A stretch of 50,361 bases of DNA from Hyphomicrobiales bacterium (GTDB taxonomy: Bacteria; Pseudomonadota; Alphaproteobacteria; Rhizobiales; Beijerinckiaceae): the NCBI GenBank assembly GCA_028290705.1, contig JAQGJH010000028.1, positions 1 through 50,361 on the forward strand, read 5' to 3'. Positions 20,772-43,648 of this stretch are shown here, piece after piece (position 1 is the first letter of the stretch; every line of letters begins with the position of its first letter). The notes under the pieces are model-generated. The model had not been told where the DNA came from. It did not search any database and saw nothing but the letters and a program-made list of their open reading frames with translations. Both the position numbers and the translations under genes were made by a program.

Positions 20772-21078
20772 TGCGCTGGACACCCAGTTTTACCTTTGTT
20801 ACAAAGCTAATGCGAGACGCGGTCCGGCAACGGCCCCGATTGCATTGTCTTGTCCTCAGCCAAGTATTGTGGCGAGCCGCAAAGCATCTCGGCTGAATTC
20901 TGGTCAGTATCGCTTGATATTCGACCGACGTTTTCGCGATCTCATCCTTGACGCATTCTCCTTTCTGCGTAGGCTCCTGATGAAATATTTCAGGGATGCG
21001 AGAGGGTTGAATGTTGTGGACTGAGCCTTTGCCCGCCCGGCGCCTCGTCGAGACTTCCACGCGTCGGAACTTCGCGCC
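20772..21078. promoter_or_regulatory. 307-bp control region before module 2
   Basis: No convincing gene is seen here; short frames on either strand lack coding character. The region is less GC-rich than its surroundings. It carries the MarR-type operator with an overlapping promoter (20777-20808, listed separately), a second possible promoter TTGACG-N16-TAGGCT (20948-20975) and a perfect 12-bp palindrome TGAAATATTTCA (20981-20992). The long leader between operator and start codon (about 270 bp) leaves room for further control. Confidence 0.5.
20777..20808 (+). promoter_or_regulatory. Promoter with MarR-type operator (copy 1)
   Basis: TTACCTTTGTTACAAAGCT (20790-20808) contains the perfect palindrome CTTTGT-T-ACAAAG (20794-20806). 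It differs from the site at 43605-43623 at one base, the palindrome centre. A -35-like TGGACA (20777-20782) is followed after exactly 17 bp by TACAAA (20800-20805) inside the palindrome, so a bound repressor would block the promoter. Transcription would run toward the UbiD and TctCBA genes. Confidence 0.6.
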
Positions 21079-22503
21079 GTGACCGGTCCCTCGCGTTTGC
21101 TGACCAACGACGTCCTCGACACCCGCTTCCGCTCCGCGCTCGCGCGTCTCGCGGGGGATGGGCGACTCGACACATGTACGCGTGAGATCGATCCTGATCT
21201 CGAACTCGCCTCAGTCATGAAAGCGCTGGACGGCGGCCCGGCGCTGCTGTTCCCCAAGGTGCGGGGTCACGCCGGCGCCGTGGTCGGCAATCTGCTGAGT
21301 TGCCAGGCCAATTGCGAATCCGCTTTCGGCGCGGACTTCCGCGCCATCCGGGGCTTCGTCGAGCGCGCCATCGACAATCCGCTGCCGCCGCGCCTCGTCG
21401 CCTCCGCGCCCGCGCAGGAGATCGTGCTGCGGGAGTTCGACATCCGCGATATCTTGCCGGCGTTGCGTCACGCGCCAGCTGACGCGGGCCGCTTCGTCAC
21501 GGCCGGAATCCTGATCGTCCGCGATCCCGAAACCGGCGTTTACAACGCCTCCTATCATCGTCTGCAACTGCACGGCCCCGATCGGCTCGGTGTGAAGCTT
21601 GATTTCGGTCGGCACCTGCGTCTCGCTTATGAGCGCGCCAAGGCACGCGGCGAAAACCTGCCCGTCGCGGTCGTGCTCGGCGCCGACCTAGCGCTGCATT
21701 TCACGGCCGCCACCATGGGCTCGCAAATGCCCGAGGGCGCGGACGAAATGGCCGTCGCGGGCGGACTTTCCGGCGCCGCCCTGCCGGTCGTCGAGGCGAT
21801 CACGCAGCCGCTCCTGGTTCCGGCCGAATCCGAATTCATCATGGAGGGCGAAATCCTCACGAGCGAGGATGCGCAGGAAGGACCGTTCGGCGAATTCATC
21901 GGGTTCATGGCGCCCGCCGCGCCCGCGCCCGTCCTGAAACTCTCGGCGGTGACGCATCGCCGCGATCCGATCTACCCGGCCATCAACGGCTACGGCCGAG
22001 AGACGATCATGCTGCGCAAATACGTGCTGGAGGCGAGCCTCCTCAAAGTGTTGCGCTCCGCCATCCCGATCGTGGTCGATGCCGAGATGACGGCCGGCGG
22101 CTTGCATCGCTTCCACGCCATCGTGCAGGTAAAGAAGCAGATGACGCAGCACGAAGGCCTGCAGCGCAACGCGATACTCGCCTCCTTCGGCGCGCTCAAG
22201 GATCTCGATTACGTCGTCGTGGTGGATGACGACATCGACATCCGTGATCCGCTGGACGTCGAATATGCGCTCGCGACCCGGATGGAAGCATCGCGCGACC
22301 TCATCGTCATCCCGGGTGCGCGCGGGCACGAGTACGTGCGCGCCGGCAACAATGGCATCCGCGCCAAGCTCGGCATCGACGCAACCGTGCCGTTCGAGGA
22401 GAAGCACCGCTTCGCCCGCGTCGCCTTCGCTCCGGTCGAGCGCGAAGCCGGCCTGTTCACATCCGATCCCGCAGCCGCCGAGGCTGCTCTGGGACTCACC
22501 TGA
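21079..22503 (+). CDS. UbiD-family decarboxylase, copy 2
   Basis: The 474-residue protein keeps the UbiD catalytic residues: Arg161 (NASYHRLQ) and the Glu pair E267/E272 (EGPFGEFIGF). Its central KLDFGRHLRLAYERAKARGENLPVAVVLGADLALHF block and the C-terminal DYVVVVDDDIDIRD block are typical of the family. GTG 21079 is the first usable start after an in-frame stop at 21022; no strong ribosome-binding site precedes it. The protein needs prenylated FMN from a UbiX enzyme encoded elsewhere. It heads module 2, about 30 bp before a TctC gene, so it probably acts on the acid imported by TctCBA. It is clearly different from the UbiD at 9163-10590. Confidence 0.88.
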   Translation: MTGPSRLLTNDVLDTRFRSALARLAGDGRLDTCTREIDPDLELASVMKALDGGPALLFPKVRGHAGAVVGNLLSCQANCESAFGADFRAIRGFVERAIDNPLPPRLVASAPAQEIVLREFDIRDILPALRHAPADAGRFVTAGILIVRDPETGVYNASYHRLQLHGPDRLGVKLDFGRHLRLAYERAKARGENLPVAVVLGADLALHFTAATMGSQMPEGADEMAVAGGLSGAALPVVEAITQPLLVPAESEFIMEGEILTSEDAQEGPFGEFIGFMAPAAPAPVLKLSAVTHRRDPIYPAINGYGRETIMLRKYVLEASLLKVLRSAIPIVVDAEMTAGGLHRFHAIVQVKKQMTQHEGLQRNAILASFGALKDLDYVVVVDDDIDIRDPLDVEYALATRMEASRDLIVIPGARGHEYVRAGNNGIRAKLGIDATVPFEEKHRFARVAFAPVEREAGLFTSDPAAAEAALGLT

Positions 22504-22532
22504 GACTGTTTCGGAACGAGGGAGACTGCGAG

Positions 22533-23501: not shown

Positions 23502-23585
23502 GCCGGCAATCAGTCGCGATCCGCGCCGGGCCGACACGCCGGCGCGGATGTTTGCGCGAGCCAAACAGGCGATGGGGGATCTTGA

Positions 23586-24035
23586 ATGAACGGGGCCTTC
23601 TGGCGCGGCAACATCGACTTTTATTGCGGGCTTTTGCTGCTCTCGATCTCCGCACTTGCCATCTGGACGGTATCTGAACTCGATTTCGGCACCGCCCAGG
23701 AGATGGGCCCTGCCTATTTCCCGCTCGTGGTCGCGGGACTTCTGGGAGCCATGAGCCTGTTCATGATCGTCAAGGGCCTGCTCACCCGCGGTGAAGCGGT
23801 CGGACACATCGAAGTCAGGCCGCTGTTCTTCATCCTGGCGTCCTTCCTGGCCTTCGGACTTCTCGTCCAGCCCGCCGGCCTGATCATCGCGATCGTCACG
23901 CAGGTGGCGCTCGCCCATTTCGCCTCGCCCGATACGCGGGTGATCGAGTCGATCCTCTTCGCGCTGGGCCTCGCGGTCTTTTCCGCGGTCGTCTTCGTCC
24001 ATCTCCTCGGCATTCCCGTGAGTCTTTTTCCATGA
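23586..24035 (+). CDS. tctB: TctB-family small membrane subunit, copy 2
   Basis: The 149-residue protein has four hydrophobic segments and the TctB motif FGTAQEMGPAYFPLVVAGLLG near residue 35, matching SRMGPGYFP in the first copy. It pairs with TctA in the inner membrane. Its stop overlaps the tctA start by four bases, so the two are translationally coupled. Confidence 0.92.
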   Translation: MNGAFWRGNIDFYCGLLLLSISALAIWTVSELDFGTAQEMGPAYFPLVVAGLLGAMSLFMIVKGLLTRGEAVGHIEVRPLFFILASFLAFGLLVQPAGLIIAIVTQVALAHFASPDTRVIESILFALGLAVFSAVVFVHLLGIPVSLFP

Positions 24036-25546
24036 TGGACGTTCTCGGACTTCTCGCCCACGGCTTCACCGTCGCGGGCACGCCCCAGAACCTGTTTTAC
24101 TGTCTGGTCGGAGCGCTGTGCGGCACGCTCATCGGCGTGCTTCCGGGCCTCGGTCCCGTGGCGACCATTTCGCTGCTGCTGCCCGCCACCTATGCGCTCG
24201 ATCCGACCGGCGCGATCATCATGCTGGCGGGCATCTATTACGGCGCTCAATACGGCGGCTCCACCACCGCCATCCTGATGAACATCCCGGGCGAGTCGAC
24301 ATCAGTCGTGACAGCGCTGGACGGTCATCGCATGGCCCAGCAGGGCAGGGCCGGCGAGGCTCTGGCGATCGCCGCCATCGGGTCGTTCTTCGCCGGCTGC
24401 GTCGGCTCGCTCGTCATCGCGCTCGCGGGGCCGCCTCTGGCGGGCATCGCCCAGAAATTCGAATCTCCCGATTATTTCTCGCTCATGCTGCTCGGCCTCG
24501 TCTCGGCCGTGGTTCTGGCCAACGGCTCGGTGTTTCGCGCCATCGCGATGATCCTGCTGGGCCTGCTTCTAGGTCTCGTCGGATCGGACATCAATTCGGG
24601 CCTGACCCGCATGACGTTCGGGTTTCTGCAATTGTCCGACGGCGTCAATTTCGTCGCCATCGCGATGGGCCTGTTCGGCGTGGCGGAAGTCGTCAGCAAT
24701 CTCGAGACACGCGGCGAAAAGAAAGGCCAGATCGCCCGCATCGGCTCGCTCTGGCCTTCGATGAAGACTTTGCTGGCGACCAAATGGGCGGTGATGCGCG
24801 GCACACTCATGGGCATTGCCTTCGGCATTCTGCCGGGCGGCGGCGCAACCGTCGCGTCGTTTTCCGCCTATGCATTGGAGAAGAAGATCGCGCGCGATCC
24901 CTCGCGCTTCGGCAATGGTGCGGCGGAGGGCGTGGCCGCCCCGGAAGCCGCCAACAACGCCGCCGCCCAGACCTCGTTCGTTCCCCTGCTGACGCTCGGC
25001 ATCCCGACCAGCGCCACCATGGCGCTGATGATCGGCGCGCTGACGTTGCACGGCATCGCGCCCGGCCCGATGGTGCTGACGCGCCAGCCCGATCTGTTCT
25101 GGGGCCTGATCGCCAGCATGTTCATCGGCAACCTGATGCTCGTCGTCATCAACCTGCCGATGATCGGGCTGTGGGTGAAGCTGCTGAACATCCCCTACCG
25201 CATGCTCTTCCTCGTCATCCTGGTGATCAGCGGCATCGGCGTCTATTCGGTCAACAACTCGGTTTTCGACGTCTATCTCACGCTCGCCTTCGGCCTGCTG
25301 GGCTACATCCTGCGCAAGCTCGACGCGGAGCCGGCGCCGCTGCTGATGGGCTTCGTCCTGGGTCCGCCCATGGAGGAAAACATCCGTCGCAGCCTCATCA
25401 TCTCGCAGGGCGATTTCATGGTTTTCTTGCAGCGTCCGATCAGCCTGACGCTGCTGCTGGCCGCCGCCGCCCTGTTGATTTCAGTCGCGCTGCCGTTCAT
25501 CCGCAAGCGCCGTGTGGAAGTGTTCAAAGATGAATCCGCAATCTGA
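24032..25546 (+). CDS. tctA: TctA-family large membrane subunit, copy 2
   Basis: The 504-residue permease shows TctA motifs in order: GVLPGLGPVATISLLLP near residue 38, GIYYGAQYGGSTTAILMNIPGE near 68, ILPGGGATVASFSAYALEKK near 275 and APEAANNAAAQTSFVPLLTLGIPT near 300. It is strongly similar along its whole length to the first TctA. The 3' end overlaps the TPP enzyme gene by 17 bases, in a different frame, which binds transport and catabolism together in translation. Confidence 0.93.
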   Translation: MMDVLGLLAHGFTVAGTPQNLFYCLVGALCGTLIGVLPGLGPVATISLLLPATYALDPTGAIIMLAGIYYGAQYGGSTTAILMNIPGESTSVVTALDGHRMAQQGRAGEALAIAAIGSFFAGCVGSLVIALAGPPLAGIAQKFESPDYFSLMLLGLVSAVVLANGSVFRAIAMILLGLLLGLVGSDINSGLTRMTFGFLQLSDGVNFVAIAMGLFGVAEVVSNLETRGEKKGQIARIGSLWPSMKTLLATKWAVMRGTLMGIAFGILPGGGATVASFSAYALEKKIARDPSRFGNGAAEGVAAPEAANNAAAQTSFVPLLTLGIPTSATMALMIGALTLHGIAPGPMVLTRQPDLFWGLIASMFIGNLMLVVINLPMIGLWVKLLNIPYRMLFLVILVISGIGVYSVNNSVFDVYLTLAFGLLGYILRKLDAEPAPLLMGFVLGPPMEENIRRSLIISQGDFMVFLQRPISLTLLLAAAALLISVALPFIRKRRVEVFKDESAI

Positions 25547-27182
25547 AAAACTCCGTAATGGCGGCCAGATTCTGGTCGCGGCCCTGCGGGTCAATGGAAC
25601 CGACACGGTCTTCGGCGTGCCGGGTGAAAGCGCGCTGCCGATCTTCGATGCGTTTCTCGACGAAACGCCGGCGCTGCGATTCATCGTCTGTCGGCACGAA
25701 GCCAACGCGGCCCATATGGCCGAGGCCGACGCCAAGCTCACCGGCCGCCCGGGAATCTGCATGGCGAGCCGCGGCCCCGGCGCGATGCATGCCGCCATCG
25801 GCGTCCACACCGCCTGGCAGAACTCGACGCCCATGATCCTCATAGTCGGGCAGGCCCCGCGCGTCCACCTCGGTCGCGAAGCCTTCCAGGAGATGGATCT
25901 CGTCAAGGCCTTCGCGGGCTCGACCAAATGGGCGGCGGAAATCGGACATCCCGATCAGATCCCCGAATATGTCGCCCGCGCCTACCAGATCGCCATGCAC
26001 GGGCGGCCCGGCCCGGTGATGCTCTCGATTCCCGAAGACGTGCTCGCCGCCACCAGTGCGGTCGGGGACGCGGAGCCGTTCAAGATCCTCACGCCCGCGC
26101 CGACGGCGCACGACATGGCGCAATTGCACGACCTGCTGCAGGCGGCCCAGCGTCCGTTGATGATCGTCGGAGGAGGCGGCTGGACCGCGCATGACGTCGC
26201 CGGCCTGGCGAAGTTCGCGCAGCAGAACGGGCTGCCGGTGGTGGCGGGGTTCCGTTGCCAGGATCTGCTCGACAATCGCGATCCGCATTACATCGGGGAC
26301 ATGAGCCTCGGCGGCAGCCGTCCGCTGGCGGCGCGCCTCGCACAAGCCGACTTTCTGCTCGTCGTGGGCGATCGGCTCGGCGAGGTGACGACGCGCGCCT
26401 ACACGTCGGTGCGTTGCCCCGATCCCGCACAGGTGCTGGTCCACGTCCATCCAGGATCCGACGAACTCGGCCGCGTCTACAATGCGCATCTGCCGATCAA
26501 CGCCACGGTCGGGACATTCGTGGACGCACTGCAGCGGCTCGCGCCCGTCGAATCTTCGCGCTGGTCGTCTTGGCTGGCCGAAGGACGCGCCGCCTATGTC
26601 GAATTCCAGAAGCCCAAGCAGAACGCGCCGGCGCTCGATCTCGGCCGCGCCATCCTGCACCTGCGCGATGTGCTGCCCGACGACGCCATCGTGGCCAATG
26701 GCGCGGGCAACTGCAACATCTGGCTGCACCGCTATTTCAGCTATCGCCAGCATGGCACACAGGTTGCGCCCCAATCGGGCGCCATGGGCTACGGACTGTC
26801 GGCCGCGATTGCCGCCAAGCTCCGTCATCCCGACCGAACCGTCGTGGGTTTCGCCGGCGACGGCTGCTTCATGATGGCGTCGCCCGATTTCGCCACGGCC
26901 GTGCATTACGGATTGAAGCTCATGGTGCTCGTCGCCAACAACGCCATGTATGGTTCGATCCGCATGCATCAGGAACGTCAGTTTCCGGGCCGGCCGAGCG
27001 GCACGTCGCTCACCAACCCTGATTTCGTCCAGCTGGCGCAATCCTACGGAGCGCATGGCGAACGCGTCGAAAGCGACGCCGAGTTTCCCGCCGCACTCGA
27101 GCGGGCGCTCGCCGCCGAAGGTCCGGCGATCCTGGAACTGCGGCTCGATCCCAACCAGCTCACACCGGATCTGTCACTCTGA
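25530..27182 (+). CDS. TPP-dependent acetolactate synthase-like enzyme (full length)
   Basis: The 550-residue protein has all three domains of the family. The N-terminal domain carries the TPP-activating Glu57 in CRHEANAAHMAEADAK. A middle domain covers about residues 190-320. The C-terminal domain has the diphosphate motif AGDG (Asp444) followed by VLVANN. ATG 25530 is chosen because GGAAG lies 5' of it and the upstream start would add only six residues inside tctA. It may be a 2-oxo acid decarboxylase, a carboligase or an oxalyl-CoA decarboxylase-type lyase; substrate residues cannot be judged by eye. The same combination with TctCBA occurs at 1-3865. The gene ends two bases before the stop of the convergent M42 peptidase gene. 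Confidence 0.9.
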   Translation: MNPQSEKLRNGGQILVAALRVNGTDTVFGVPGESALPIFDAFLDETPALRFIVCRHEANAAHMAEADAKLTGRPGICMASRGPGAMHAAIGVHTAWQNSTPMILIVGQAPRVHLGREAFQEMDLVKAFAGSTKWAAEIGHPDQIPEYVARAYQIAMHGRPGPVMLSIPEDVLAATSAVGDAEPFKILTPAPTAHDMAQLHDLLQAAQRPLMIVGGGGWTAHDVAGLAKFAQQNGLPVVAGFRCQDLLDNRDPHYIGDMSLGGSRPLAARLAQADFLLVVGDRLGEVTTRAYTSVRCPDPAQVLVHVHPGSDELGRVYNAHLPINATVGTFVDALQRLAPVESSRWSSWLAEGRAAYVEFQKPKQNAPALDLGRAILHLRDVLPDDAIVANGAGNCNIWLHRYFSYRQHGTQVAPQSGAMGYGLSAAIAAKLRHPDRTVVGFAGDGCFMMASPDFATAVHYGLKLMVLVANNAMYGSIRMHQERQFPGRPSGTSLTNPDFVQLAQSYGAHGERVESDAEFPAALERALAAEGPAILELRLDPNQLTPDLSL

Positions 27183-27184
27183 TC

Positions 27185-28357: not shown

Positions 28358-30052
28358 TCAAGCGCCGGGCAGCGCCGCGGCGCGCGCGGAGGCCGGCATG
28401 GAATTTGGAAACAGCAGGTCGACGAACCGCTCCGCCGTTGGCTGTGGCGCGTGATTGGCGAGGCCCGGACGCTCGTTGGCTTCGATGAAGACATAGTCCG
28501 GACTGCGCGGCGAGGGAACGATGAAATCGATGCCCACCACCGGAATGTCGATGGCGCGCGCCGCCAGGATCGCGGCCTTGACGAGCTGGTGATGCACCTC
28601 GTCGGTGACGTCGTGGATCGTCCCGCCCGTGTGCAGGTTCGCGGTGTTGCGCACCTGCACGTCCAGACCATCGGCAGGCACGTCGTCGGGCGCGAAGCCA
28701 GCCTCCGCGAGGCATCGAATCGCCTCCGCGTCCAGCGGAATGGTCGATTCGCCGCCGGTCGCGGCGGCGCGTCTGCGGCTCTGCACCCTGATCAGATCCC
28801 GCAGTGTCGAGCGTCCATCGCCGATCACGCGCGCAGGCCGTCGGATGGCGGCCGCCACGAGCTTGAAGTCGATGATCACGAGTCGCAGATCCTCGCCCTC
28901 TGCCCGGCGCTCCACCAGCACGCGATCGCAATAACGCCGCGCGGTTTCGATCGCGGCGTCGACCTCATCGAGCGTCTTCAACCCGACCGCAATACCGCGG
29001 CCCTGCTCGCCACGTGCCGGTTTGACAACGACGCTTCCGTGCTGCGCCAGAAAGGCCGCGACCGCGTCGCGGTCATCCGCGTCGATCTGTTCGGGAGTCA
29101 GGACTCCCGCCGCCTCGACGATGCGCCGCGTCACCGACTTGTCGTCGCAGATGCTCATGGCGACGCCGCTCGTGAGCTCACTGAGCGACTCGCGGCAATG
29201 GATCGAGCGTCCTCCAAGCGACAGACGAAAGAAGCCGCCTTCAGCATCCGTCACCCGCACGTCGATGCCGCGCCGTCGCGCCTCGTCGACGATGATGCCC
29301 GCATAGGGATTGAGCGCGGCCTCGGGCGCCGGCCCGGTGAACAATCTCTCGTTGATCGAATTCTTCCGCTTCAGCGTGAAATAGGGAACGCGCGCGAAGC
29401 CGAGCTTTTCATAAAGCGAGATCGCCTGCTCGTTGTCGTGCAGGACGGTCAAGTCCGTGTAGGTCGCGCCTCGCGCACCCAGATGCTCGATGGCGCTGCG
29501 CACCAGCGACTCGCCGAGTCCGGGCCAGCGCGCCTGCGGATCGACCACCAGGCACCAGAACGAAGATCCGTGGTCCCCCGCGCCCAGGGCGGCTTCATGG
29601 TCGATGGCCATCACCGACCCGAGCACGACCCCGGTGCTCTCTTCCTCGGCGACGAAGATGCGGATGCCGCTGCTCTCGTAGTCGGTCTGCAGGAAGTCGG
29701 GTCGGATCGGCACCATGCGCCGCGCCGCATAGATGCGATTGACGCTGTCGACGTCCTCGGGAATCTCGATGGGTCGAATGCGAAAGCCCTGCATGCCGCG
29801 AAGAGAGGGCGCGTAGGCGGCATGTTCCAGCCGGAACGTGTGCGACGGGTCGAGGAACAACTCGTGCGGCGCCATGGCCAGCAGCACATGTGGATCGGAC
29901 ACGTAGATGGCGACATCGCGCCCGTCCGGCGCTTCGCTGCGCATGTCGTCGGCCAGCACGGATGGATCCTCGAAGGTCTGGCCGAACAGCAGGCGGCCCC
30001 ACCCGCAATCGATGGATGCGTTCAGCGCGGTCTGGCTCCTTGCGTTCGCCAT
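28358..30052 (-). CDS. ngg: N-acetylglutaminylglutamine synthetase (GNAT plus ATP-grasp)
   Basis: The 564-residue fusion has a GNAT acetyltransferase domain (about residues 100-260; LVVDPQARWPGLGESLVRSAIEHLGARG and NEQAISLYEKLGFARV are visible). An ATP-grasp ligase domain follows (about 320-555; VVKPARGEQGRGIAVGL, VLVERRAEGEDLRLVII and EANERPGLANH). It makes N-acetylglutaminylglutamine from glutamine, acetyl-CoA and ATP in the cytosol. The amidotransferase gene ends three bases upstream, so the two are co-translated. Together they build the osmolyte NAGGN. Confidence 0.93.
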   Translation of the reverse strand: MANARSQTALNASIDCGWGRLLFGQTFEDPSVLADDMRSEAPDGRDVAIYVSDPHVLLAMAPHELFLDPSHTFRLEHAAYAPSLRGMQGFRIRPIEIPEDVDSVNRIYAARRMVPIRPDFLQTDYESSGIRIFVAEEESTGVVLGSVMAIDHEAALGAGDHGSSFWCLVVDPQARWPGLGESLVRSAIEHLGARGATYTDLTVLHDNEQAISLYEKLGFARVPYFTLKRKNSINERLFTGPAPEAALNPYAGIIVDEARRRGIDVRVTDAEGGFFRLSLGGRSIHCRESLSELTSGVAMSICDDKSVTRRIVEAAGVLTPEQIDADDRDAVAAFLAQHGSVVVKPARGEQGRGIAVGLKTLDEVDAAIETARRYCDRVLVERRAEGEDLRLVIIDFKLVAAAIRRPARVIGDGRSTLRDLIRVQSRRRAAATGGESTIPLDAEAIRCLAEAGFAPDDVPADGLDVQVRNTANLHTGGTIHDVTDEVHHQLVKAAILAARAIDIPVVGIDFIVPSPRSPDYVFIEANERPGLANHAPQPTAERFVDLLFPNSMPASARAAALPGA

Positions 30053-30055
30053 GGC

Positions 30056-31831
30056 TCAGATCCCGTGCTTCTGGAGCCAGAGTTCGAGCAGCGCCACCTG
30101 CCAGAGCTCGGAGCCGCGCAAGGGTGTGATGGCGTCTCGCGGACGGGCATAGAGGCTGTCGAGATAATCCTGCCGGAACAATCCGCGATCGCGTGCAGCC
30201 CGGTTCGACAGGGCGTCGCGCACGAAATCCAGTCTCGGTCCGTCGATGTATTTGAGGCCCGGAACCGGGAAGTACCCCTTTTCGCGGTCGATCACGTCAT
30301 GAGGGATCACCTTGCGGGCGGCCTCCTTCAAAATGCCTTTCCCGCCATGCGCCAGTTTGTGACGCGCCGGAATACGCGCGGCAAACTCGCCGACCTGATG
30401 GTCGAGGAATGGCACGCGGGCTTCGAGCCCGCACGACATCGTCATGTTGTCGACCCGCTTCACAGGGTCGTCGACCAGCATCACCGTGCTGTCGAGCCGC
30501 AGCGCCTTGTCGACCGGGTCGCTCGCGCCCGGCAGATCGAAATGGGCTTGCACGTAGGCGCGCACCTCGTCGTCCTGCACGTGCCAGGCGGGCGACAGAT
30601 GAGCGGCGAGTCGCGCGTGATCCCTGTCGAGGAAGGCGCGCGTGTAGTCGCCCACCGGGTCTTGCGAGCCCGCCATCGGCGGATACCAGTGGTAACCCGC
30701 GAACACTTCGTCGGCCCCCTGGCCCGAGAGCACGACCTTGACGTGTTTCGAGACCTCGCGCGAGAGGAGATAGAACGCGACATTGTCATACGAGACCATC
30801 GGCTCCGACATGGCCGCGATGGCGCCCGGAAGCGCGTCGATCATCTCGCGTTCCGGCACGAAGATCTTGTGGTGGTGCGTCCCGTAATGCCTGGCGATGA
30901 GGTCGGAGTAACGGAACTCGTCACCTTTCTCGCCATGCGCTTCCTCGAATCCGATCGAGAAGGTCTGCAGATCCTTCTGCCCGCGGTCCGCCAGCAGCCC
31001 GACCAGCAGGCTGGAATCCAGTCCACCCGACAGCAGCACGCCGACCGGAACGTCCGCCACCATGCGGCGCTCCACGGCCGCATGCAGCTCCTCCAGCAGC
31101 ATGTCGCGCCATTCCGCTTCGCTGCGGCGCTCGTCTTCCGCGCTGCGATCGAAACTCATGCGCCAATAGGTGCGCTCCGTGAACGTCCCGTCCGACTCGA
31201 TCACTCGGATGGTGGCGGGCGGCAGTTTGCGCACGCCTTTCAAAATTGTGCGCGGCGGCGGCACGATGGCGTGCAGGCTCATGTAGAATTGCAGCCCCAC
31301 GGGGTCGATCGCCGTGTCCACCCGACCGGTGGCGACCAGCGCCGGCAGCGACGAGGCGAACAGCAACGCGCCGTCTGTTTCGGCGAGGTAGAGCGGCTTG
31401 ATCCCGAAGCGGTCGCGCGCCAGCACCACACGTCCGCTGTCGCGCTCGTGGATCGCGAAGGCGAACATGCCGTTGAACCGTTGCACGCATTCGGGTCCCC
31501 AGGCGTGATAGGCCTTGAGGATCACCTCGGTGTCGCCGCCGGAGAAAAAGCGGTAGCCGCGCTGTTCGAGGTTGGCGCGAAGCTCTTTGTAATTGTAGAT
31601 GCAGCCGTTGAACGCGATGCTCAGGCCGAGATCGGCGTCGACCATGGGCTGCTCGGCCTTGGCCGAAAGGTCGATGATGCTCAGGCGCCGGTGGCCGAGC
31701 GTGACACGCCCGCGCGAAACCAGACCGTTTCCGTCCGGTCCGCGGGGGGCCAGCGCCTCTGACATCTTCTCCACGGCGGCGGCGCCCGCCGCCTTACCGT
31801 CGAAACGGATCTCGCCGCAAATCCCGCACAT
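30056..31831 (-). CDS. asnO: N-acetylglutaminylglutamine amidotransferase (AsnB-like)
   Basis: The 591-residue protein starts MCGICGE, so Cys2 is the glutaminase nucleophile. It has the class II glutamine amidotransferase domain (about 1-210) and an asparagine-synthetase domain with the ATP-pyrophosphatase loop LSGGLDSS near residue 270 and SGQGADEVFAGYHWYP near 370. It converts N-acetylglutaminylglutamine to its C-terminal amide, the compatible solute NAGGN, used under osmotic stress. It is the first gene of the asnO-ngg-peptidase operon. It starts 92 bp after the stop of the SDR gene, which may be co-transcribed. Confidence 0.93.
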   Translation of the reverse strand: MCGICGEIRFDGKAAGAAAVEKMSEALAPRGPDGNGLVSRGRVTLGHRRLSIIDLSAKAEQPMVDADLGLSIAFNGCIYNYKELRANLEQRGYRFFSGGDTEVILKAYHAWGPECVQRFNGMFAFAIHERDSGRVVLARDRFGIKPLYLAETDGALLFASSLPALVATGRVDTAIDPVGLQFYMSLHAIVPPPRTILKGVRKLPPATIRVIESDGTFTERTYWRMSFDRSAEDERRSEAEWRDMLLEELHAAVERRMVADVPVGVLLSGGLDSSLLVGLLADRGQKDLQTFSIGFEEAHGEKGDEFRYSDLIARHYGTHHHKIFVPEREMIDALPGAIAAMSEPMVSYDNVAFYLLSREVSKHVKVVLSGQGADEVFAGYHWYPPMAGSQDPVGDYTRAFLDRDHARLAAHLSPAWHVQDDEVRAYVQAHFDLPGASDPVDKALRLDSTVMLVDDPVKRVDNMTMSCGLEARVPFLDHQVGEFAARIPARHKLAHGGKGILKEAARKVIPHDVIDREKGYFPVPGLKYIDGPRLDFVRDALSNRAARDRGLFRQDYLDSLYARPRDAITPLRGSELWQVALLELWLQKHGI

Positions 31832-35852: not shown

Positions 35853-36600
35853 GCCTCGCGGCGAGCGGCGCTCGCATCGTCGCTCCGTTCGAGGCGCTCG
35901 ACGCGCGCACGCGGCTCGTGGCGGCGCTGTCTCTCGTTCTCGTCACCGTGTCGATGCGCAGTCTCTCCGGGCAGGTCGCCGCCCTGCTGCTGGCGCTCGT
36001 CATGTTGCGTCTGTCGGGGCTGTCGCTCGCCCAGACGTCGCGCCGGCTCCTTCACGTCGAAGGATTCATGATCGCGCTGCTGGTCCTGCTGCCGCTCACC
36101 GTGCCGGGACCGGCGCTGTTGTCGTTCGGCCCCTTCAGCATGTCTCAGCCGGGCGTCGCACGCGCCGTGTCGATCATCCTCTCGGTCAACGCCGCCGTTC
36201 TTTCAACCCTTTCGCTCCTGCACACGCTCGAGCCCGTTCGGCTCGGCCGCGCCCTGGCGTCGCTCGGCCTCCCGTCGCGGCTGGTTCACCTGATGATGTT
36301 TCTCGTCCGTTACCAGTCGCTGCTGCGCGACGAGGCGACCCGTCTGGTCGAAGCCATGCGGGCGCGTGGCTTCGCCGGACGCCTGCGCATGCACACGTGG
36401 CGAACCTATGGTAACCTCGTGGGCATGCTGCTCGTGCGCTCCGTCGAACGTGCCGAGCGTGTCGACGAAGCCATGCGCTGCCGCGGCTTTTCCGGACGCT
36501 TTCCGATGCGCGCCAACCGGCCGCTGACCCGCGCCGATTGGCGCTTCGGATGCGCGCTCGCGGCGGTGCTCGCAGCGCTCGTGGGTTTGGATCGCTTTTC

Positions 36601-36604
<4 letters not shown>
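35849..36604 (+). CDS. nikQ: ECF transporter transmembrane coupling subunit (NikQ/CbiQ)
   Basis: The 251-residue membrane protein starts at GTG 35849. It contains the two Ala-Arg-Gly type coupling motifs of the EcfT/CbiQ family, EAMRARGF near residue 170 and EAMRCRGF near residue 207, which dock on the ATPase. It transmits ATP-driven movement to the metal-binding NikM. Start and stop overlap the flanking genes by four bases, so the operon is tightly coupled. Confidence 0.9.
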
Positions 36605-37329
<725 letters not shown>

Positions 37330-37455
37330 GCCGGGCCGCTTCGACGACTTGCTGATGGCGGCCGATCCTTCATGTGCTAGCCTTTCAGGCAGACCCGCCG
37401 GGCCGTGCCGCGCGCAGGAGCGTCCCGCCGCAAATCTCAGCTTGATCCCTGCGAA

Positions 37456-37478
37456 GATAGCTATACGATTTAGCTATC
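37456..37478. promoter_or_regulatory. Inverted repeat upstream of the Liv-type operon
   Basis: GATAGCTA (37456-37463) and TAGCTATC (37471-37478) are perfect 8-bp arms around TACGATT. The site lies in the 227-bp gap between nikO and livH, which otherwise shows nothing clear. Its position about 80 bp before the livH start suits an operator or activator site. TAGCTATA is also found in the HpaB/marR control region (43632-43639). Confidence 0.5.
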
Positions 37479-37556
37479 GACTTGTCTTATCGGCCCTGTG
37501 CCGGGTGGCTGGGCGTACCCCGTGATTTCTTCCATCCGCAGGATTGGCGGCTGCAC

Positions 37557-38429
37557 ATGGTTTCGCAACAGATCGTCAACGGCCTCATGCTCGGCTCGAT
37601 CTACATGCTGGTGGCGGTGGCTTTCACGCTCGCCATCGGGGTCCTGAACTTCCTCAATTTCTCGATTCCCGGCCTCTTCATGCTGGGCGGCATGGCGGCA
37701 TACGGCGGCGTCAAGATGGGGCTGCATTGGTCGCTCGCCTTCGCGGGCGCGCTGGCGCTCGCGGGCCTCGTATCGCTCGCGGTCGAGCGGCTGGCCTATC
37801 GTCCGATGCGGGGCGGCGATCCCGAAGTGCCGCTGGTCTCGTCGCTTGGATTTCTGGTGCTGCTCGAGAACCTGATGCTGATCCGCTTCGGCTCCGACCA
37901 GCAGGCTTTTCCGGCGCTCCTGGCTGACACGAACCTGCGCGTCGGCGGACTCGTCATCGGCATGGCGCAACTTGCGTCGCTGGCGCTCTCCATCGCGCTC
38001 GTCATCTGGCTGTCGTGGTTTCTCTCCGCCACGAACACGGGACGCCGCGTTCGCACGGTGGCGGAGAGCGGCGAGACGGCGGTGCTGCTCGGTATCGACA
38101 TGTCGTCGCTCGTGCCCCGGCTCTTCATCGGCAGCGCGCTTCTCGCCGCGACCGCCGGCATTCTCTTCGCGGTCAATTACCAGCAGGTCTCGCCTTTCAT
38201 GGGTGAGGGCGTCGGCTTCAAGGGCGTGGCCGCCATGATCGTCGGCGGCATGGGCTCGATCTGGGGCGCGGTTCTGGGCGGCCTGCTGATCGGCATGGTC
38301 GAAGTCCTGTCGATCTCGCTCATCGGCTCCAATGTGGTGAACATCACCGTCTACGGTTTGCTGCTGCTGATCCTCATCCTGCGTCCCCAGGGCCTGATGG
38401 GTCGCCCGCCGAGCCGGGAGAAACTGTAA
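37557..38429 (+). CDS. livH: Branched-chain-amino-acid-type ABC permease LivH
   Basis: The 290-residue protein starts MVSQQIVNGLMLGSIYMLVAVAFTLAIGVLNFLNFSIPGLFMLGG, a textbook LivH opening, with about eight membrane helices and the conserved GKGVAAMIVGGMGSIWGAVLGGLLIGMVE-like segment near residue 220. ATG 37557 is preferred to an upstream start that would add 25 unlike residues. It forms one half of the channel of a HAAT-type importer. In catabolic contexts these systems also import aromatic acids, and the neighbouring hydroxylase and MarR genes make that possible here. Confidence 0.92.
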   Translation: MVSQQIVNGLMLGSIYMLVAVAFTLAIGVLNFLNFSIPGLFMLGGMAAYGGVKMGLHWSLAFAGALALAGLVSLAVERLAYRPMRGGDPEVPLVSSLGFLVLLENLMLIRFGSDQQAFPALLADTNLRVGGLVIGMAQLASLALSIALVIWLSWFLSATNTGRRVRTVAESGETAVLLGIDMSSLVPRLFIGSALLAATAGILFAVNYQQVSPFMGEGVGFKGVAAMIVGGMGSIWGAVLGGLLIGMVEVLSISLIGSNVVNITVYGLLLLILILRPQGLMGRPPSREKL

Positions 38430-39271
38430 TGAGCGGTTATCTGACGGGCGTTCTCGTCACGCTCTCCTTCAACGTCATCGCGGCCTATGCGGTTTATCTG
38501 CCGATGGCCGCCGGGCAGCTCAATCTCGGCATCGCGGGCTTCATGGCGATCGGCGCCTACCTGGGTGCGTTCCTCACCAACGAACTGTCCTGGCCGATCT
38601 GGGCTGCCGTGCCGGTCAGCGCCGGGCTCGCGGGCACCGTCGGTCTTCTGATCGGCCTGCCTGTCCTGCGCACGCACGGCATCTATCTCGCCATGGCGAC
38701 CTTCGCGCTCGGCCAGGTGATCTCCGCCACCTTCCTCAATCTCGAGGTTGTGGGCGGCGCGGCCGGTTACCCGGTCGCCGCCTATGCGCCGCCCGCCGTG
38801 GTCTTCGCCGCCGCCGCGGGCGTGTTTCTGTTCATGGTGCTGCTGTCCACCACGCGCTTTGCGCTTTACCTCACGGCCGTGAAGAGCGACGCCACGGTGG
38901 CGGATCTGCTCGGCATTTCCGTGCGCGGCATCCAGGTTGCGGCCTTCACGCTCGGCGCCGTGGTGGCGGGCTTTGGCGGCGCACTCTACGGGCATCACTA
39001 CAGCTTCATCGAGGCGCAGCATTTCAACGTCATGCTGAGCGTCTTCCCGGTGCTTTACGTGCTGTTCGGCGGCACCCAGACGGTGCTTGGGCCGCTCGTC
39101 GGCGCGCTGTTCTTCACGCTCGCGCCCGAATGGCTGCGCGCCAGCGCCGAATGGCGTTACGCGCTGTTCGCCATGTTCATCATCCTGTTCATGGCGGCGC
39201 GGCCGCAGGGCCTCGTCACCACGTCGATGTTCAGGCTGTTAGGCCGTCGCAAGGCGCAGGCGCCCGCATGA
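38429..39271 (+). CDS. livM: Branched-chain-amino-acid-type ABC permease LivM
   Basis: The 280-residue permease has the LivM features QLNLGIAGFMAIGAYLGAFLTNE near residue 30, RTHGIYLAMATFALGQVI near residue 80 and the cytoplasmic AVKSDATVADLLGISVRGIQVAAFTLGA docking region near residue 150. Its ATG overlaps the livH stop by one base and its stop overlaps livG by four. It is the second channel half. Confidence 0.92.
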   Translation: MSGYLTGVLVTLSFNVIAAYAVYLPMAAGQLNLGIAGFMAIGAYLGAFLTNELSWPIWAAVPVSAGLAGTVGLLIGLPVLRTHGIYLAMATFALGQVISATFLNLEVVGGAAGYPVAAYAPPAVVFAAAAGVFLFMVLLSTTRFALYLTAVKSDATVADLLGISVRGIQVAAFTLGAVVAGFGGALYGHHYSFIEAQHFNVMLSVFPVLYVLFGGTQTVLGPLVGALFFTLAPEWLRASAEWRYALFAMFIILFMAARPQGLVTTSMFRLLGRRKAQAPA

Positions 39272-40029
39272 GCGCCGCCCTTTCCATCACGAGTCTGTCG
39301 AAAGCTTTCGCGGGCGTGCGCGCCATCGACGATCTCAGCTTCGAGGTGCCGGAAGGCAAGGCCGTGGCGCTGATCGGCCCGAACGGCGCCGGCAAGACGA
39401 CGGTGTTCAACCTCGTCAGCGGCGTCTACCCGGTCGACCAGGGCGTCATTCTGGTCAAGGGCGTCGACGTGACGAACATGCCGTCGCGCAAGCGCATCTC
39501 CACGGGCGTTGCGCGCAGCTTCCAGAACATCCGGCTGATGGCCCACCTCAGCGTGCTGGAAAATCTGCTCGTCGGGCAGCACGTGCGCAACGCGTCCCTC
39601 TGGTCCCTGCTCACGCCCTATCGGCTCGCGCCGAACCATCGCTGGAAGCGCGAGGCCCTGAAGGCCTTGGCGGAAAGCGGGCTCGATGGCTATGCGTACG
39701 ACACCGTCGGGGCATTGCCTTATGGCGTGCGCAAGCGGATCGATCTCGTGCGCGCCACGCTGGCGGGGGCCAGCGTCCTCATGCTGGACGAGCCAGCCGC
39801 CGGACTCAACCCGACTGAAACCAACGCCCTGCGGGAGGATCTCCGCGCCCTCAAGTCGCGCGGCCTGACGCTGCTGGTGGTCGAGCATGACATGCAATTT
39901 GTCGAGTCGGTCTGCGAAAACGTCGTGGTGCTGAACTTCGGCCAAAAGATCGCCGAGGGGCCGCTGTCCGTGGTCCGGCAGGACCGTCTCGTGCGCGAGG
40001 CCTATCTGGGCGCGGAAGAGGAGACCTGA
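39268..40029 (+). CDS. livG: Branched-chain-amino-acid-type ABC ATPase LivG
   Basis: The 253-residue ATPase has Walker A GPNGAGKTTVFNLVSG near residue 35, the LivG-specific GVARSFQNIRLMAHLSVLENLLVG near 80, and Walker B VLMLDEPAAGLNPTE near 170. The signature LPYGVRKRIDL replaces the usual LSGGQ, as is normal for LivG. ATG 39268 overlaps livM by four bases. It pairs with LivF to drive import. Confidence 0.93.
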   Translation: MSAALSITSLSKAFAGVRAIDDLSFEVPEGKAVALIGPNGAGKTTVFNLVSGVYPVDQGVILVKGVDVTNMPSRKRISTGVARSFQNIRLMAHLSVLENLLVGQHVRNASLWSLLTPYRLAPNHRWKREALKALAESGLDGYAYDTVGALPYGVRKRIDLVRATLAGASVLMLDEPAAGLNPTETNALREDLRALKSRGLTLLVVEHDMQFVESVCENVVVLNFGQKIAEGPLSVVRQDRLVREAYLGAEEET

Positions 40030-40033
40030 CGCG

Positions 40034-40765
<732 letters not shown>

Positions 40766-40795
40766 GAACATGTCTCTTCAACGTGGAGTGTGCAG

Positions 40796-41965
40796 ATGAA
40801 CAAGCTTCCTCTTTACAGCGTCGCCATCCTGGCCGGCGCCCTGTCGACCCAGGGCGCGAGCGCGCAGGAATTGCTGCTTGGGTACATGATGGCCAAGAGC
40901 GGCCCCTACGTCAGCCTTGCCAACACCAACGAGCTTGCGGTCGACCTCGCGGTCGAGGAGATCAACAACAAGGGCGGCGTCGGCGGCCGCAAGATCAAGG
41001 TCGTGAAGTTCGATACGGCCGGCGATCCCAAGCAGGCCACGACGGCGCTCCGCCGCTTCGCCAGCGACGACGCCGTGCTGGGCGTCATCGGGCCGTTCTC
41101 ATCCTCGGAAGTGCGCACCACCTTCCCGGTCGGCGAGCGTGAAGGGCTTGCCCAGATGTCGATGGCCTCTTCCGCCCCGGGACTGACCAAGGGCTTCACC
41201 TACGGCTATCGCAACACCACGGACGAGGGCCTGGTGATCGACCAGGTGCTGGCGGCCCTCAAGGCCAAGAACCTGCCGGCCGCCAACGGCGTCGCGGCCT
41301 TCGCGACCGACGACGTCGTGTCGAAGTCGATCGGCTCCACCGTCGTGCCCGCGATGTTCAAGAAACATTCGATCAATCTCAAGGGCTCGGTCGACTTCCA
41401 GTACGCGGCCTTCGATCTGTCGCCGCAGGTGGCGCAGATCAAGCAGATGGCGCCCGACATCATCGGCCTCGGCTCGCCGCCCGAAGGCGCCGTCAACCTC
41501 GCCCGGGAATTGAAGCGCCAGAACGTCACGACCCGGGTCATCGGCGGCACCACCATCGCCGATCCCGAACTGCCGAAGCGCATGGCGGGCGCGGGCGAGA
41601 TGCTCACCATCGGCACGACCTTCTTTCCCGAGGTGAACGACAAGACCCGCGCTTTCACGGCGGAATTCGCCAAGCGCGCCAAGGCGGCGGGCTTCGAGCG
41701 CACCGATCCCAACCAGTTCGACGCCTCGGTCTACGACATCGTCTATCTCTACGCCGAAGCCATGAAGACCGGCGCGGTGACGGGCGACAAGGCGAAGCTC
41801 GCGGCCGAGCGTACGACCGTCCGCGACGAACTCGCCAAGATCAAGAATCTCGAACTGCTCGAAGGCGCCATCTCCTTCACGGGCGGCGACGCGGTGAAGC
41901 CGGTCTATGTGCTGGAAGTGAAGGGCGGCAAGTGGACGCTGCTCGACACCCGCATGCCGAACTGA
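40796..41965 (+). CDS. livK: Liv-type periplasmic substrate-binding protein
   Basis: The 389-residue protein has a Sec signal (residues 1-23, ending GASAQ). A type I periplasmic binding fold follows: SGPYVSLANTNELAVDLAVEEINNKGGVGGRKIKVVKFDTAGDP near residue 35, and VLGVIGPFSSSEVRTTFPVGE near residue 95. ATG 40796 is preferred to GTG 40790 because GTGGAG lies seven bases before it. It is the substrate receptor of the LivHMGF importer; ligand residues cannot be judged. It is the last gene before a strong terminator. Confidence 0.92.
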   Translation: MNKLPLYSVAILAGALSTQGASAQELLLGYMMAKSGPYVSLANTNELAVDLAVEEINNKGGVGGRKIKVVKFDTAGDPKQATTALRRFASDDAVLGVIGPFSSSEVRTTFPVGEREGLAQMSMASSAPGLTKGFTYGYRNTTDEGLVIDQVLAALKAKNLPAANGVAAFATDDVVSKSIGSTVVPAMFKKHSINLKGSVDFQYAAFDLSPQVAQIKQMAPDIIGLGSPPEGAVNLARELKRQNVTTRVIGGTTIADPELPKRMAGAGEMLTIGTTFFPEVNDKTRAFTAEFAKRAKAAGFERTDPNQFDASVYDIVYLYAEAMKTGAVTGDKAKLAAERTTVRDELAKIKNLELLEGAISFTGGDAVKPVYVLEVKGGKWTLLDTRMPN

Positions 41966-41985
41966 CCCGGCGAAGAGATCAAATG

Positions 41986-42018
41986 AAAAGGGCCGGCTCG
42001 CGAGAGCCGGCCCTTTTT
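41986..42018. terminator. Strong bidirectional rho-independent terminator
   Basis: GGGCCGGCTC (41990-41999) pairs perfectly with GAGCCGGCCC (42004-42013) around a GCGA tetraloop. AAAA before and TTTTT after the stem provide the U-tract on either strand. It separates the Liv operon (+) from the convergent HpaB-type gene (-) and should end both. Confidence 0.92.
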
Positions 42019-42043
42019 GCTGTGCCCGACGACGGGCCGTGAC

Positions 42044-43528
42044 TCACTCGGCCGCCTGCGCGACTCCCGGGCCGATCTCGTCCGCCAGACTATAGCCCGA
42101 CATCATCCGCTCCAGCAGCGCATCTGCCTGCGCCCAGTCGTAAGTGCGGAACGAATGGTTCTTCACCACGAAGCTGGCCCCCGCGTAGAACATTTCGTAC
42201 TGCGCATGCCGCGAGGCGAATTCGGAGCCGACGGCGTCCCACGCCAGCTTGAAGAACTTGACGCGCTCTTCGGCGCTTCCAGCGGGCGACTGCTGCGTCT
42301 TGCCGATGAGGCGCGCGATCTCGGGGTTTTCGAAGTCATGCACCGACGACGGCAGCATGATCATGCCGCCGCCTGCCAGATCGCGCAGCGTGTTGATCAC
42401 CTTGCCGTACAGCTGCTGCGCCAGCGTCTGGGCGGCGTAGAGCGTGTGACGGTCGGGAACGAAATAGGGCCCATAATGGCTGCCTTTCGCCTCCATGGCG
42501 ACGATGAACGCATCCACCATCGCGGCCTCGGCGGCGAGCTGTCCAAGCGTTTCCTTCACCTGCGGGAAACCGGTCGTGCCGTTCACCTTGGTGATGCGAT
42601 GCGCGATACCCAGAAGGAACTTCAGTTTCACCGACAGGCGGATCTGCGCCTGATAGTTCTGGTAGACATGCGCGGGCGTGCCGGAAAACTGCTTCATTGT
42701 CATGTCGATGTTGTCGACGATGAACACCCGGTCCCACGGCACTTTCACGTCGTCGAAATACAGCACCGCGTCGTTCTCGTCGAAGCGGCTCGCCATCGGA
42801 TTGTCGAAGACCGACGGCGCCGACGCCTCGTAGGATTTGCGCGACAGGATCTTCAGGCCCTTCGCATTCATCGGGATGGCGAAGGAAATCGCGTATTTCT
42901 CGTCGCCCGGCTGCAACGGCTGGATGCAGGTGACGAAGACTTCGTTGGCCATGATGCCGCCGGTGGCGAGCATTTTCGCGCCCCGCACCGTGATGCCCTC
43001 GGCGTCGCGATCGACGACGCCCGCCGAAAGAAACGGATCCTGCTGCTGCGACGCCGTCTTCGAGCGGTCGGCCTGCGGATTGATGATCACATAGGTGAGA
43101 TAGAGATCGTTGTCGCGCGCATACCGATAGTAATCCGCCAGCGCCTTGGCGCGATCCTTGTCGTAGGCCTCGAACACGTCGAGCCCCATGTACATGCCCG
43201 AAATGCAGGACGCCACATGGTCGGGCGCGCGGCCGAGAAAACCGGCGTGCAATTCAGTCCAGGCCTCGAGTCCGCGACGGCGCGTCTTGAGGTCCTCGTA
43301 GCTCTTGGGCAATTGCCAGATCCGATTGGCGGTCGTTCCCGTATCGGTCTGGAACGTCATCAACTCGCGATTTTCGGGCAAGGAATGGAAGTCGAACATA
43401 CGACCGACGGATGCGATCGCGCCCGCATAAGCGGGATGAGTGGTGGCGTCGTCCACCAGCTTGCCGTCGAGGAAGATCTGTCGGCCATCCTTCAGGCTGG
43501 CGATATGCTGCTGGCCATTCTTGATCAT
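42044..43528 (-). CDS. HpaB-type FADH2-dependent monooxygenase, copy 2
   Basis: The 494-residue protein belongs to the 4-hydroxyphenylacetate 3-hydroxylase family: DGRQIFLDGKLVDD near residue 16, GFLGRAPDHVAS near 100, PQADRSKTASQQQDPFLS near 155 and the C-terminal AVGSEFASRHAQYEMFYAGAS. The start is ATG 43528, preceded by GGAGGA at 43541-43536, rather than ATG 43597, which has no such site and would add a basic stretch. No flavin reductase gene is adjacent, so it needs reduced flavin from elsewhere, perhaps the reductase at 5562-6128. The divergent MarR gene and the palindromic operator in between indicate substrate-inducible expression. It is only moderately similar to the first copy. Confidence 0.9.
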   Translation of the reverse strand: MIKNGQQHIASLKDGRQIFLDGKLVDDATTHPAYAGAIASVGRMFDFHSLPENRELMTFQTDTGTTANRIWQLPKSYEDLKTRRRGLEAWTELHAGFLGRAPDHVASCISGMYMGLDVFEAYDKDRAKALADYYRYARDNDLYLTYVIINPQADRSKTASQQQDPFLSAGVVDRDAEGITVRGAKMLATGGIMANEVFVTCIQPLQPGDEKYAISFAIPMNAKGLKILSRKSYEASAPSVFDNPMASRFDENDAVLYFDDVKVPWDRVFIVDNIDMTMKQFSGTPAHVYQNYQAQIRLSVKLKFLLGIAHRITKVNGTTGFPQVKETLGQLAAEAAMVDAFIVAMEAKGSHYGPYFVPDRHTLYAAQTLAQQLYGKVINTLRDLAGGGMIMLPSSVHDFENPEIARLIGKTQQSPAGSAEERVKFFKLAWDAVGSEFASRHAQYEMFYAGASFVVKNHSFRTYDWAQADALLERMMSGYSLADEIGPGVAQAAE

Positions 43529-43604
43529 GAGCTTGTCCTCCGGCGATGTCGGGACGCGGCGTCGTCTGACGTTCGAGCGGGATGACGCAGCTGCCATGCC
43601 GCAA

Positions 43605-43648
43605 TTACCTTTGTAACAAAGCTTATTAAGCTAGCTATAAGCTGTCAA
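43605..43648. promoter_or_regulatory. Divergent promoter region with MarR-type operator (copy 2) and a second palindrome
   Basis: TTACCTTTGTAACAAAGCT (43605-43623) contains the palindrome CTTTGT-A-ACAAAG (43609-43621). Directly overlapping it is another perfect palindrome, AGCTTA-T-TAAGCT (43620-43632). On the minus strand TTGACA (43648-43643) is followed after 17 bp by TAAGCT (43625-43620), a plausible promoter for the HpaB-type gene with its -10 at the operator edge. On the plus strand TTGTAA (43611-43616) and CTATAA (43635-43640) could serve marR. A bound repressor would cover both. This is the sister of the site at 20790-20808. Confidence 0.65.

What the first reader, a model, noticed from the sequence alone, without database searches (positions are those of the whole stretch)
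20790..43623. The same 19-bp palindromic operator 23 kb apart: a MarR regulon linking two catabolic loci
TTACCTTTGTTACAAAGCT (20790-20808) and TTACCTTTGTAACAAAGCT (43605-43623) differ only at the palindrome centre. The first lies before the UbiD-TctCBA-TPP module, the second between a MarR gene and a divergent HpaB-type hydroxylase. Both overlap plausible -10 boxes. I infer that one MarR protein controls hydroxylation, uptake and decarboxylation of one substrate class from two distant sites. I know of no described regulon with this composition.
Basis: partly seen in the sequence, partly recalled or inferred. Interest (0 to 1): 0.75.

Follow-up and report, generated by a model that had tools for sequence, protein, structure and literature searches.

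The report
MarR regulon for aromatic-acid catabolism
One regulatory protein appears to control, through the same short DNA sign placed at three separate promoters, the genes a bacterium would need to take up, hydroxylate and decarboxylate a still unknown aromatic acid.

Summary
The two 19-bp palindromes are exactly where stated, differ only at the centre, and the core CTTTGTWACAAAG occurs nowhere else in the held 3.02-Mb (74% complete) genome. The inference of one MarR regulon is well supported by comparison. In 20 of 26 relatives' loci the operator lies within 300 bp upstream of marR. Strongest link: the four sampled genomes (three genera) with a UbiD at 66-70% identity all carry it within about 2.5 kb of this MarR. 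In one, separate operators precede a ubiX-like gene with ubiD, marR/tctC, and hpaCB. In the window the module is split; the shared operator remains as the link. Most likely mechanism: repression at the -10 box, relieved by a pathway ligand; that and the substrate are inferred. MarR control of aromatic catabolism is a known kind; none of ten paper searches listed this regulon.

The parts
20790..20810 (.). operator 1, TTACCTTTGTTACAAAGCTAA, before ubiD-tctCBA-TPP (18 nt after the upstream gene's stop codon, 268 nt before the ubiD GTG)
   Evidence: top hit (33.7) of a matrix trained on relatives only
43605..43625 (.). operator 2, TTACCTTTGTAACAAAGCTTA, between hpaB (-) and marR (+), on the likely -10 box of hpaB
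   Evidence: matrix score 28.7
43618..43638 (.). second, overlapping operator-like palindrome AAAGCTTATTAAGCTAGCTAT in the hpaB promoter spacer
   Evidence: matrix score 21.6
   Evidence: matrix score 21.9; identical in L039; sites before livH in 5 of 6 loci examined
43739..44479 (+). marR, 246 aa; MarR domain at about residues 106-168, Ala/Pro/Lys-rich N-terminal tail
   Evidence: Pfam MarR_2 1.3e-11; clade alignment
42044..43528 (-). hpaB-type flavin-dependent monooxygenase, oxygenase component (ORF runs to 43597; ATG at 43528 inferred from the homology start at residue 24 and a GGAGG before it)
   Evidence: Pfam HpaB_N 2e-91, HpaB 6.9e-59; PDB relatives 2yyg, 4oo2
21079..22503 (+). ubiD, UbiD-family decarboxylase
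   Evidence: Pfam UbiD/UbiD_C/UbiD_N; nearest PDB 6h6v (named PtHmfF in PMC8988006)
22533..23501 (+). tctC, periplasmic receptor
   Evidence: Pfam TctC 5.3e-63; PDB relatives include Bug27, BugD and a terephthalate-binding protein
23586..24035 (+). tctB
   Evidence: Pfam TctB 4.6e-15
24032..25546 (+). tctA
   Evidence: Pfam TctA 4.7e-158
25512..27182 (+). TPP-dependent enzyme (PRK08199 subfamily)
   Evidence: Pfam; NF006052 758 bits (cut-off 539)
37557..41965 (+). livH-livM-livG-livF-substrate-binding protein (livH start inferred; ORF listed from 37482)
   Evidence: Pfam; orthologous liv genes near hpaB/marR in L038, L039, L057, L060, L125, L126, L134
5562..6128 (+). flavin reductase, candidate trans partner of HpaB (43% to the reductase beside hpaB in L057); the other Flavin_Reduct match found in the genome is on contig C59

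Best explanation
The MarR protein of 43739-44479 is a local repressor. As a dimer it binds the 21-bp palindrome WTAGCTTTGTNACAAAGCTAW at three promoters: hpaB (and probably its own), the liv ABC operon, and ubiD-tctCBA-TPP. At hpaB the operator lies on the -10 box behind a conserved TTGAC -35, so binding would exclude RNA polymerase. A substrate or intermediate of the pathway releases it, and uptake (Tct, Liv), UbiD decarboxylation and HpaB hydroxylation of one aromatic or heteroaromatic acid class come on together. In other families these genes form one compact cluster around the same marR; here the cluster is split and the shared operator keeps it one regulon. Shown: the sites, their rarity, their conservation and the gene linkage. 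Inferred: binding, repression, the ligand and the substrate.
For: 2 exact core sites in the held genome, both here. Matrix from 22 relatives' sites: window hits 33.7, 28.7, 21.9, 21.6, next 0.5; no hit at 21.6 or above in 5 Mb of first-order Markov sequence. 20 of 26 relatives' loci have a site within 300 bp upstream of marR, scored with the locus's own sites left out. 4 of 4 genomes with UbiD at 66-70% have this MarR beside it. L123: sites before ubiX-like/ubiD (10394), between marR and tctC (11074) and before hpaCB (17763). L124: hpaB-hpaC, operator, marR-ubiD-tctCBA-TPP. L149 and L150: a weaker site (15.7) just upstream of ubiD. liv site in 5 of 6 loci. Plasmids: the 9 records with HpaB above 60% are 9 of the 10 with this MarR; in 5 of 6 fetched a site scoring above 20 lies at hpaC or in its divergent promoter. 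TTGAC (as GTCAA on the marR strand) 8-23 nt beyond the operator in 13 of 13 loci checked. SGAFVTIEV, probably the recognition helix, is exact in 8 of 11 clade members, its S, A, F, T, E in all 11. The one MarR paralogue found in the genome (34%, C67) has no such site in the 3 kb around it.
Against: No binding or expression data. L058 (MarR paralogue beside another UbiD) and L138 have no site; L156 has no site before livH; plasmid locus L144 has only a weak one (13.5). At ubiD the operator is 268 nt from the start codon, its -35/-10 is weak, and another promoter-like pair (TTGACG-16-TAGGCT, 20948-20975, by eye) lies nearer the gene. The promoter scanner listed none of the three promoters. The held genome is 74% complete, so 'only two' is a lower bound. 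14 more distant UbiD copies (35-41%) show neither this MarR within about 1.5 kb nor a site above 10.9, so the link holds for this UbiD subfamily only. Two of the four UbiD genomes are of one genus, and their contigs (about 7 kb) are too short to show hpaB.
Confidence: 0.82

Rival explanations
1. MarR controls hpaB, itself and liv, but operator 1 is a relic. After the cluster broke up, ubiD-tctCBA-TPP is driven by the nearer promoter-like pair at 20948-20975 and is only partly controlled, or not at all.
For: 268-nt gap to ubiD; no ubiX-like gene between site and ubiD as there is in L123; a second promoter-like pair by eye.
Against: Operator 1 is the best-scoring site of the whole window (33.7) and 18/19 identical to operator 2 with unrelated flanks, which suggests it is kept by selection; sites precede ubiD or the ubiX-like gene in L123, L149, L150.
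Confidence: 0.12
2. Another regulator (a MarR paralogue, or one on the missing quarter of the genome) reads the sites.
For: Genome 74% complete; G155 carries further MarR paralogues, one with a similar perfect site 83 bp upstream of it (C3:98836).
Against: The operator is found at this marR or its hpaC across families and on plasmids of Alpha- and Betaproteobacteria; the one paralogue found in the held genome has no such site nearby.
Confidence: 0.04
3. Chance resemblance or a dispersed repeat element.
For: The loose pattern WTAGCTN9AGCTAW with 1 mismatch is expected about 4.6 times in such a genome by composition; its backwards control matched 10 times.
Against: Exact core 2 observed against about 0.01 expected; all three loose matches lie in this 50-kb window; flanks unrelated; conserved in relatives.
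Confidence: 0.01

Closest known systems
HpaR (MarR repressor of the 4-hydroxyphenylacetate hpa-meta operon; start of the abstract of PMC7180172 seen in the listing)
   Same: MarR-family repressor tied to aromatic catabolism that includes an HpaB-type hydroxylase (the last point recalled)
   Different: NCBIfam HpaR model gives 21 bits against a cut-off of 121; the gene set here has UbiD, Tct, TPP enzyme and Liv. The hpaB here falls below both HpaB equivalog cut-offs (343/480 and 292/885)
MarR repressors of aromatic-acid and auxin catabolism: BadR, CouR, PicR, IacR (recalled, not tested)
   Same: Local MarR, palindromic operator over the promoter, ligand-released repression (recalled)
   Different: Different genes and, as far as recalled, different operators; no member was compared here
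HmfF, 2,5-furandicarboxylate decarboxylase (PtHmfF, PDB 6h6v)
   Same: Closest solved relative of the window UbiD by sequence (300 bits)
   Different: The HmfF histidine said to be key for furan specificity (H297 in PMC7976604, passages read) aligns by my reading to Thr309 here, so furandicarboxylate is not a safe guess
Flavin reductase-HpaB-cupin-amidase-DUF2848-Liv-MarR clusters on plasmids (Roseateles sp. XES5, labelled UNVERIFIED_ORG; Caballeronia sp. NK8; Thioclava sp. GXIMD2076)
   Same: Same HpaB (67-73%), MarR (37-45%) and operator
   Different: No UbiD-Tct-TPP module among the annotated genes of the stretches shown; the records shown name no substrate

Membership tests
MarR-family transcriptional regulator | winged helix-turn-helix MarR domain | tested here: met
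   PF12802 44.9 bits (cut-off 27), PF01047 27.5 (24.6)
MarR-family transcriptional regulator | palindromic operator of about 20 bp near its own gene | tested here: met
   43605-43625; 20 of 26 relatives' loci within 300 bp upstream of marR
MarR-family transcriptional regulator | dimeric, ligand-released DNA binding | not testable with these tools
   needs protein work
HpaR | passes the HpaR equivalog model | tested here: not met
   TIGR02337 21.1 bits, cut-off 121.2
4-hydroxyphenylacetate 3-monooxygenase HpaB (equivalog) | passes TIGR02309 or TIGR02310 cut-off | tested here: not met
   343.2 of 480.2 and 291.7 of 885.2 bits; it is HpaB-type by Pfam
UbiD decarboxylase | the three UbiD Pfam domains | tested here: met
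   PF01977, PF20696, PF20695; TIGR00148 313 bits (cut-off 244.85)
HmfF | furan-specificity histidine | tested here: not met
   Thr309 at the aligned place by my reading of the pairwise alignment; residue named in PMC7976604
Tripartite tricarboxylate transporter (TctCBA) | TctC, TctB, TctA adjacent on one strand | tested here: met

The most novel reading that the evidence does not exclude
A conserved, undescribed MarR clade with its own operator (ATAGCTTTGTNACAAAGCTAT), spread over Alpha- and Betaproteobacteria, governs an undescribed route for an aromatic or N-heteroaromatic acid. The core is HpaBC, cupin, amidase, DUF2848 and Liv uptake; one branch adds UbiD, Tct uptake and a TPP enzyme. In this genome the cluster has come apart and selection on the operator alone holds it together.
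Probability: 0.55. Interest if true: 0.6.

Novelty: new member of a known kind. Interest (0 to 1): 0.46.

Why it matters
It gives a regulator, an operator and a target list that can be tested with one purified protein and three short DNA probes. It also joins an HpaB-type hydroxylase and a UbiD decarboxylase, both of unknown substrate, into one pathway: whatever ligand releases the MarR is probably the substrate or a close intermediate. It is a clear case of a regulon whose shared operator outlasts gene clustering.

Tried and rejected
Chance or repeat element: rejected. 4-Hydroxyphenylacetate as substrate and HpaR identity: not supported, models below cut-off. Furandicarboxylate through HmfF: closest solved UbiD, but the key His is not kept. 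Five other genomes of the 199 sampled in the family hold the exact core pattern. One (G052) has it upstream of a MarR relative (46%); in the other four (G012, G029, G030, G085) the outer arms fit poorly (12-14 of 18 positions), and I did not follow their genes. Two further loose matches in the own genome (C86:36040, C70:71325) score 13.2 and 12.9, well below the window sites; their genes were not identified. UbiX was sought in the own genome with the L123 protein and not found; with a 74% complete genome and no positive control this shows nothing. Ten paper searches listed no description of this regulon or operator; one search showed 10 of 1,274 papers. Of the papers only passages of PMC8988006 and PMC7976604 were read; the rest were seen as listings with the start of abstracts. 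The library lacks most subscription journals.

Limits of the counts. The matrix uses 22 sites that I picked; I left out weaker or second sites (for example those of L062, L128, L130-L133, the liv sites of L060 and L039, L123:11074, L129:9323). For each relative's locus its own sites were removed before scoring; the full set was used. Of the six loci not counted among the 20: L065 and L129 have the site at hpaC, L128 and L131 have it 747 and 816 bp upstream, L058 and L138 have none. The 26 loci are those fetched with a close MarR. Dropped before that count: L040 (Variovorax, 34%), L011-L017 (26-36%; best site 10-12 of 18, so no operator there), and 12 of the 30 genomes listed that I did not fetch. 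In 24 relatives' loci (472 kb) 42 windows score 15 or more; I did not sort all of them into promoters and coding. Six of the nine plasmid records with HpaB above 60% were fetched; L144-L146 have no gene table and were read by tblastn only. The MarR search scored 13 of 23 candidates in the own genome. Promoter boxes were read by eye except the GTCAA count.
Full report
OBSERVATION. Both palindromes are present as described. The core CTTTGTWACAAAG occurs at exactly two places in the held genome, both in this window, and its backwards control at none; composition predicts about 0.01. The sites extend to 21 bp (TTACCTTTGTTACAAAGCTAA and TTACCTTTGTAACAAAGCTTA). Their flanks are unrelated (12/40 and 10/40), so the likeness is not a copied segment.

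GENES. Operator 1 lies 18 nt after the stop of an amidase/allophanate-hydrolase-type gene (18693-20771) and before ubiD, tctC, tctB, tctA and a TPP enzyme, which overlap or lie less than 100 nt apart. Operator 2 lies between hpaB (-) and marR (+). The hpaB ORF is listed to 43597, but homology to most relatives begins at about residue 24 and a GGAGG precedes an ATG at 43528, so the real leader is probably about 75 nt.

A THIRD SITE. Scanning with the arms of relatives' sites gave ATAGCTATACGATTTAGCTAT at 37457-37477, just before the liv ABC operon. WTAGCTN9AGCTAW with up to one mismatch has three matches in the held genome, all in this window: 20790, 37457 and 43618, the last overlapping operator 2. 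That loose pattern would be met about 4.6 times by chance, and its backwards control has 10 matches, so it is the clustering, not the count, that matters. The liv site is identical in L039. A site precedes livH in 5 of 6 loci examined, L156 being the exception.

THE MATRIX. A symmetric weight matrix from 22 relatives' sites, window excluded, gives the window hits 20790 (33.7), 43605 (28.7), 37457 (21.9), 43618 (21.6), and then 0.5. In 100 first-order Markov sequences of 50 kb the highest score was 13.8. Two other loose matches in the genome score 13.2 and 12.9. The one MarR paralogue found in the genome (contig C67, 34%) has no such site in the 3 kb around it.

MarR AND OPERATOR TRAVEL TOGETHER. 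In 20 of 26 relatives' loci a site scoring 18 or more lies within 300 bp upstream of marR, with the locus's own sites left out of the matrix. Two more loci (L065, L129) have it at hpaC, two (L128, L131) at about 750-820 bp, and two (L058, L138) have none. Seven more distant MarR loci (26-36%) have no good site, so the operator marks this clade. In plasmids the MarR is found in 10 records; 9 of these are the 9 records with HpaB above 60%. Six were fetched, and in 5 a site above 20 lies at hpaC or in its divergent promoter, for example AAAGCTATGTAACAAAGCTAA in Caballeronia sp. NK8, a betaproteobacterium. The segment SGAFVTIEV, probably the recognition helix, is exact in 8 of 11 aligned clade members, and its S, A, F, T and E are in all 11.

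UbiD BELONGS TO THE SAME SYSTEM. Close UbiD relatives (66-70%) are rare: in the order sample 2 genomes besides the own one among 397, in the class sample 2 besides the own one among 385. These four genomes are of three genera, and in all four the MarR relative is beside it, 0.2 to 2.5 kb away. L124 reads amidase, hpaB, hpaC, operator, marR, ubiD, tctC, tctB, tctA, TPP. L123 has three operators: before a ubiX-like flavoprotein gene and ubiD, between marR and tctC, and before hpaC-hpaB. L149 and L150 are short contigs without hpaB and have a weaker site (15.7) just upstream of ubiD. Fourteen more distant UbiD copies (35-41%) in loci of about 4 kb have neither this MarR nor a site above 10.9. So the window's two distant loci correspond to what is one cluster in L123 and L124. 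In G155 of the same genus a MarR paralogue (60%) lies beside a TctC, GMC oxidoreductase, weak TctC-like and UbiD run of genes, with a different UbiD (28%) and no site found.

MECHANISM (inferred). In 13 of 13 loci checked, GTCAA (TTGAC towards hpa) lies 8-23 nt beyond the operator; in the window TTGACA, 17 nt, TAAGCT places the -10 inside operator 2 (by eye). This is the geometry of a repressor that blocks polymerase. The scanner, which demands 4 of 6 in each hexamer and 9 of 12 in all, lists no promoter at any of the three places. At liv, TTGATC, 16 nt, TACGAT again puts the -10 in the operator. At ubiD the pair TGGACA, 17 nt, TACAAA is weaker, and another pair lies at 20948-20975, so control of ubiD could be partial.

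SUBSTRATE. Unknown. The UbiD is nearest to PtHmfF among solved structures, but the furan-specificity His is Thr here by my reading. HpaB is below the HpaB equivalog cut-offs. The solved relatives of TctC include Bug proteins and a terephthalate-binding protein. I expect an aromatic or heteroaromatic acid.

VERDICT. Observation confirmed; interpretation supported and extended by a third promoter. A MarR repressor of aromatic catabolism is a known kind; this clade, operator and gene set were not listed in the ten paper searches made.

Noticed in passing
window 70-11450: A second, parallel module: TPP-enzyme C-terminal part, TctC, TctA (with a TctB-like frame between), HpaB-type oxygenase (41% to the first), flavin reductase, DctP/DctM transporter, UbiD (30%) and a GntR/FCD regulator. 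A like enzyme set appears under another regulator in one window.
   Followed up: partly
window 3935-3955: Palindrome-like ATACATACAGCATGTAGGTAA just before the second hpaB; low MarR-matrix score (-1.2), possibly the operator of the GntR regulator.
   Followed up: no
window 43739-43900: MarR has an N-terminal tail of about 60 residues rich in Ala, Pro and Lys with repeats (KALAHSPKALAHAPKAHPPK) not seen in the ten relatives aligned.
   Followed up: no
L059:10075-10095: Operator-like TTAGCTTTCAAACAAAGCAAA before a FAD-binding monooxygenase-type gene and a TctC gene in G155 of the same genus: a further possible target of the same MarR clade.
   Followed up: partly
L141-L143: Conserved cluster flavin reductase-HpaB-cupin/DUF4437-amidase-DUF2848-Liv-MarR on plasmids of Alpha- and Betaproteobacteria, apparently a catabolic route of unknown substrate.
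   Followed up: partly
window 28358-31831: Asparagine-synthase-type gene beside a GNAT/ATP-grasp fusion gene, both on the minus strand, with no visible tie to the regulon.
   Followed up: no
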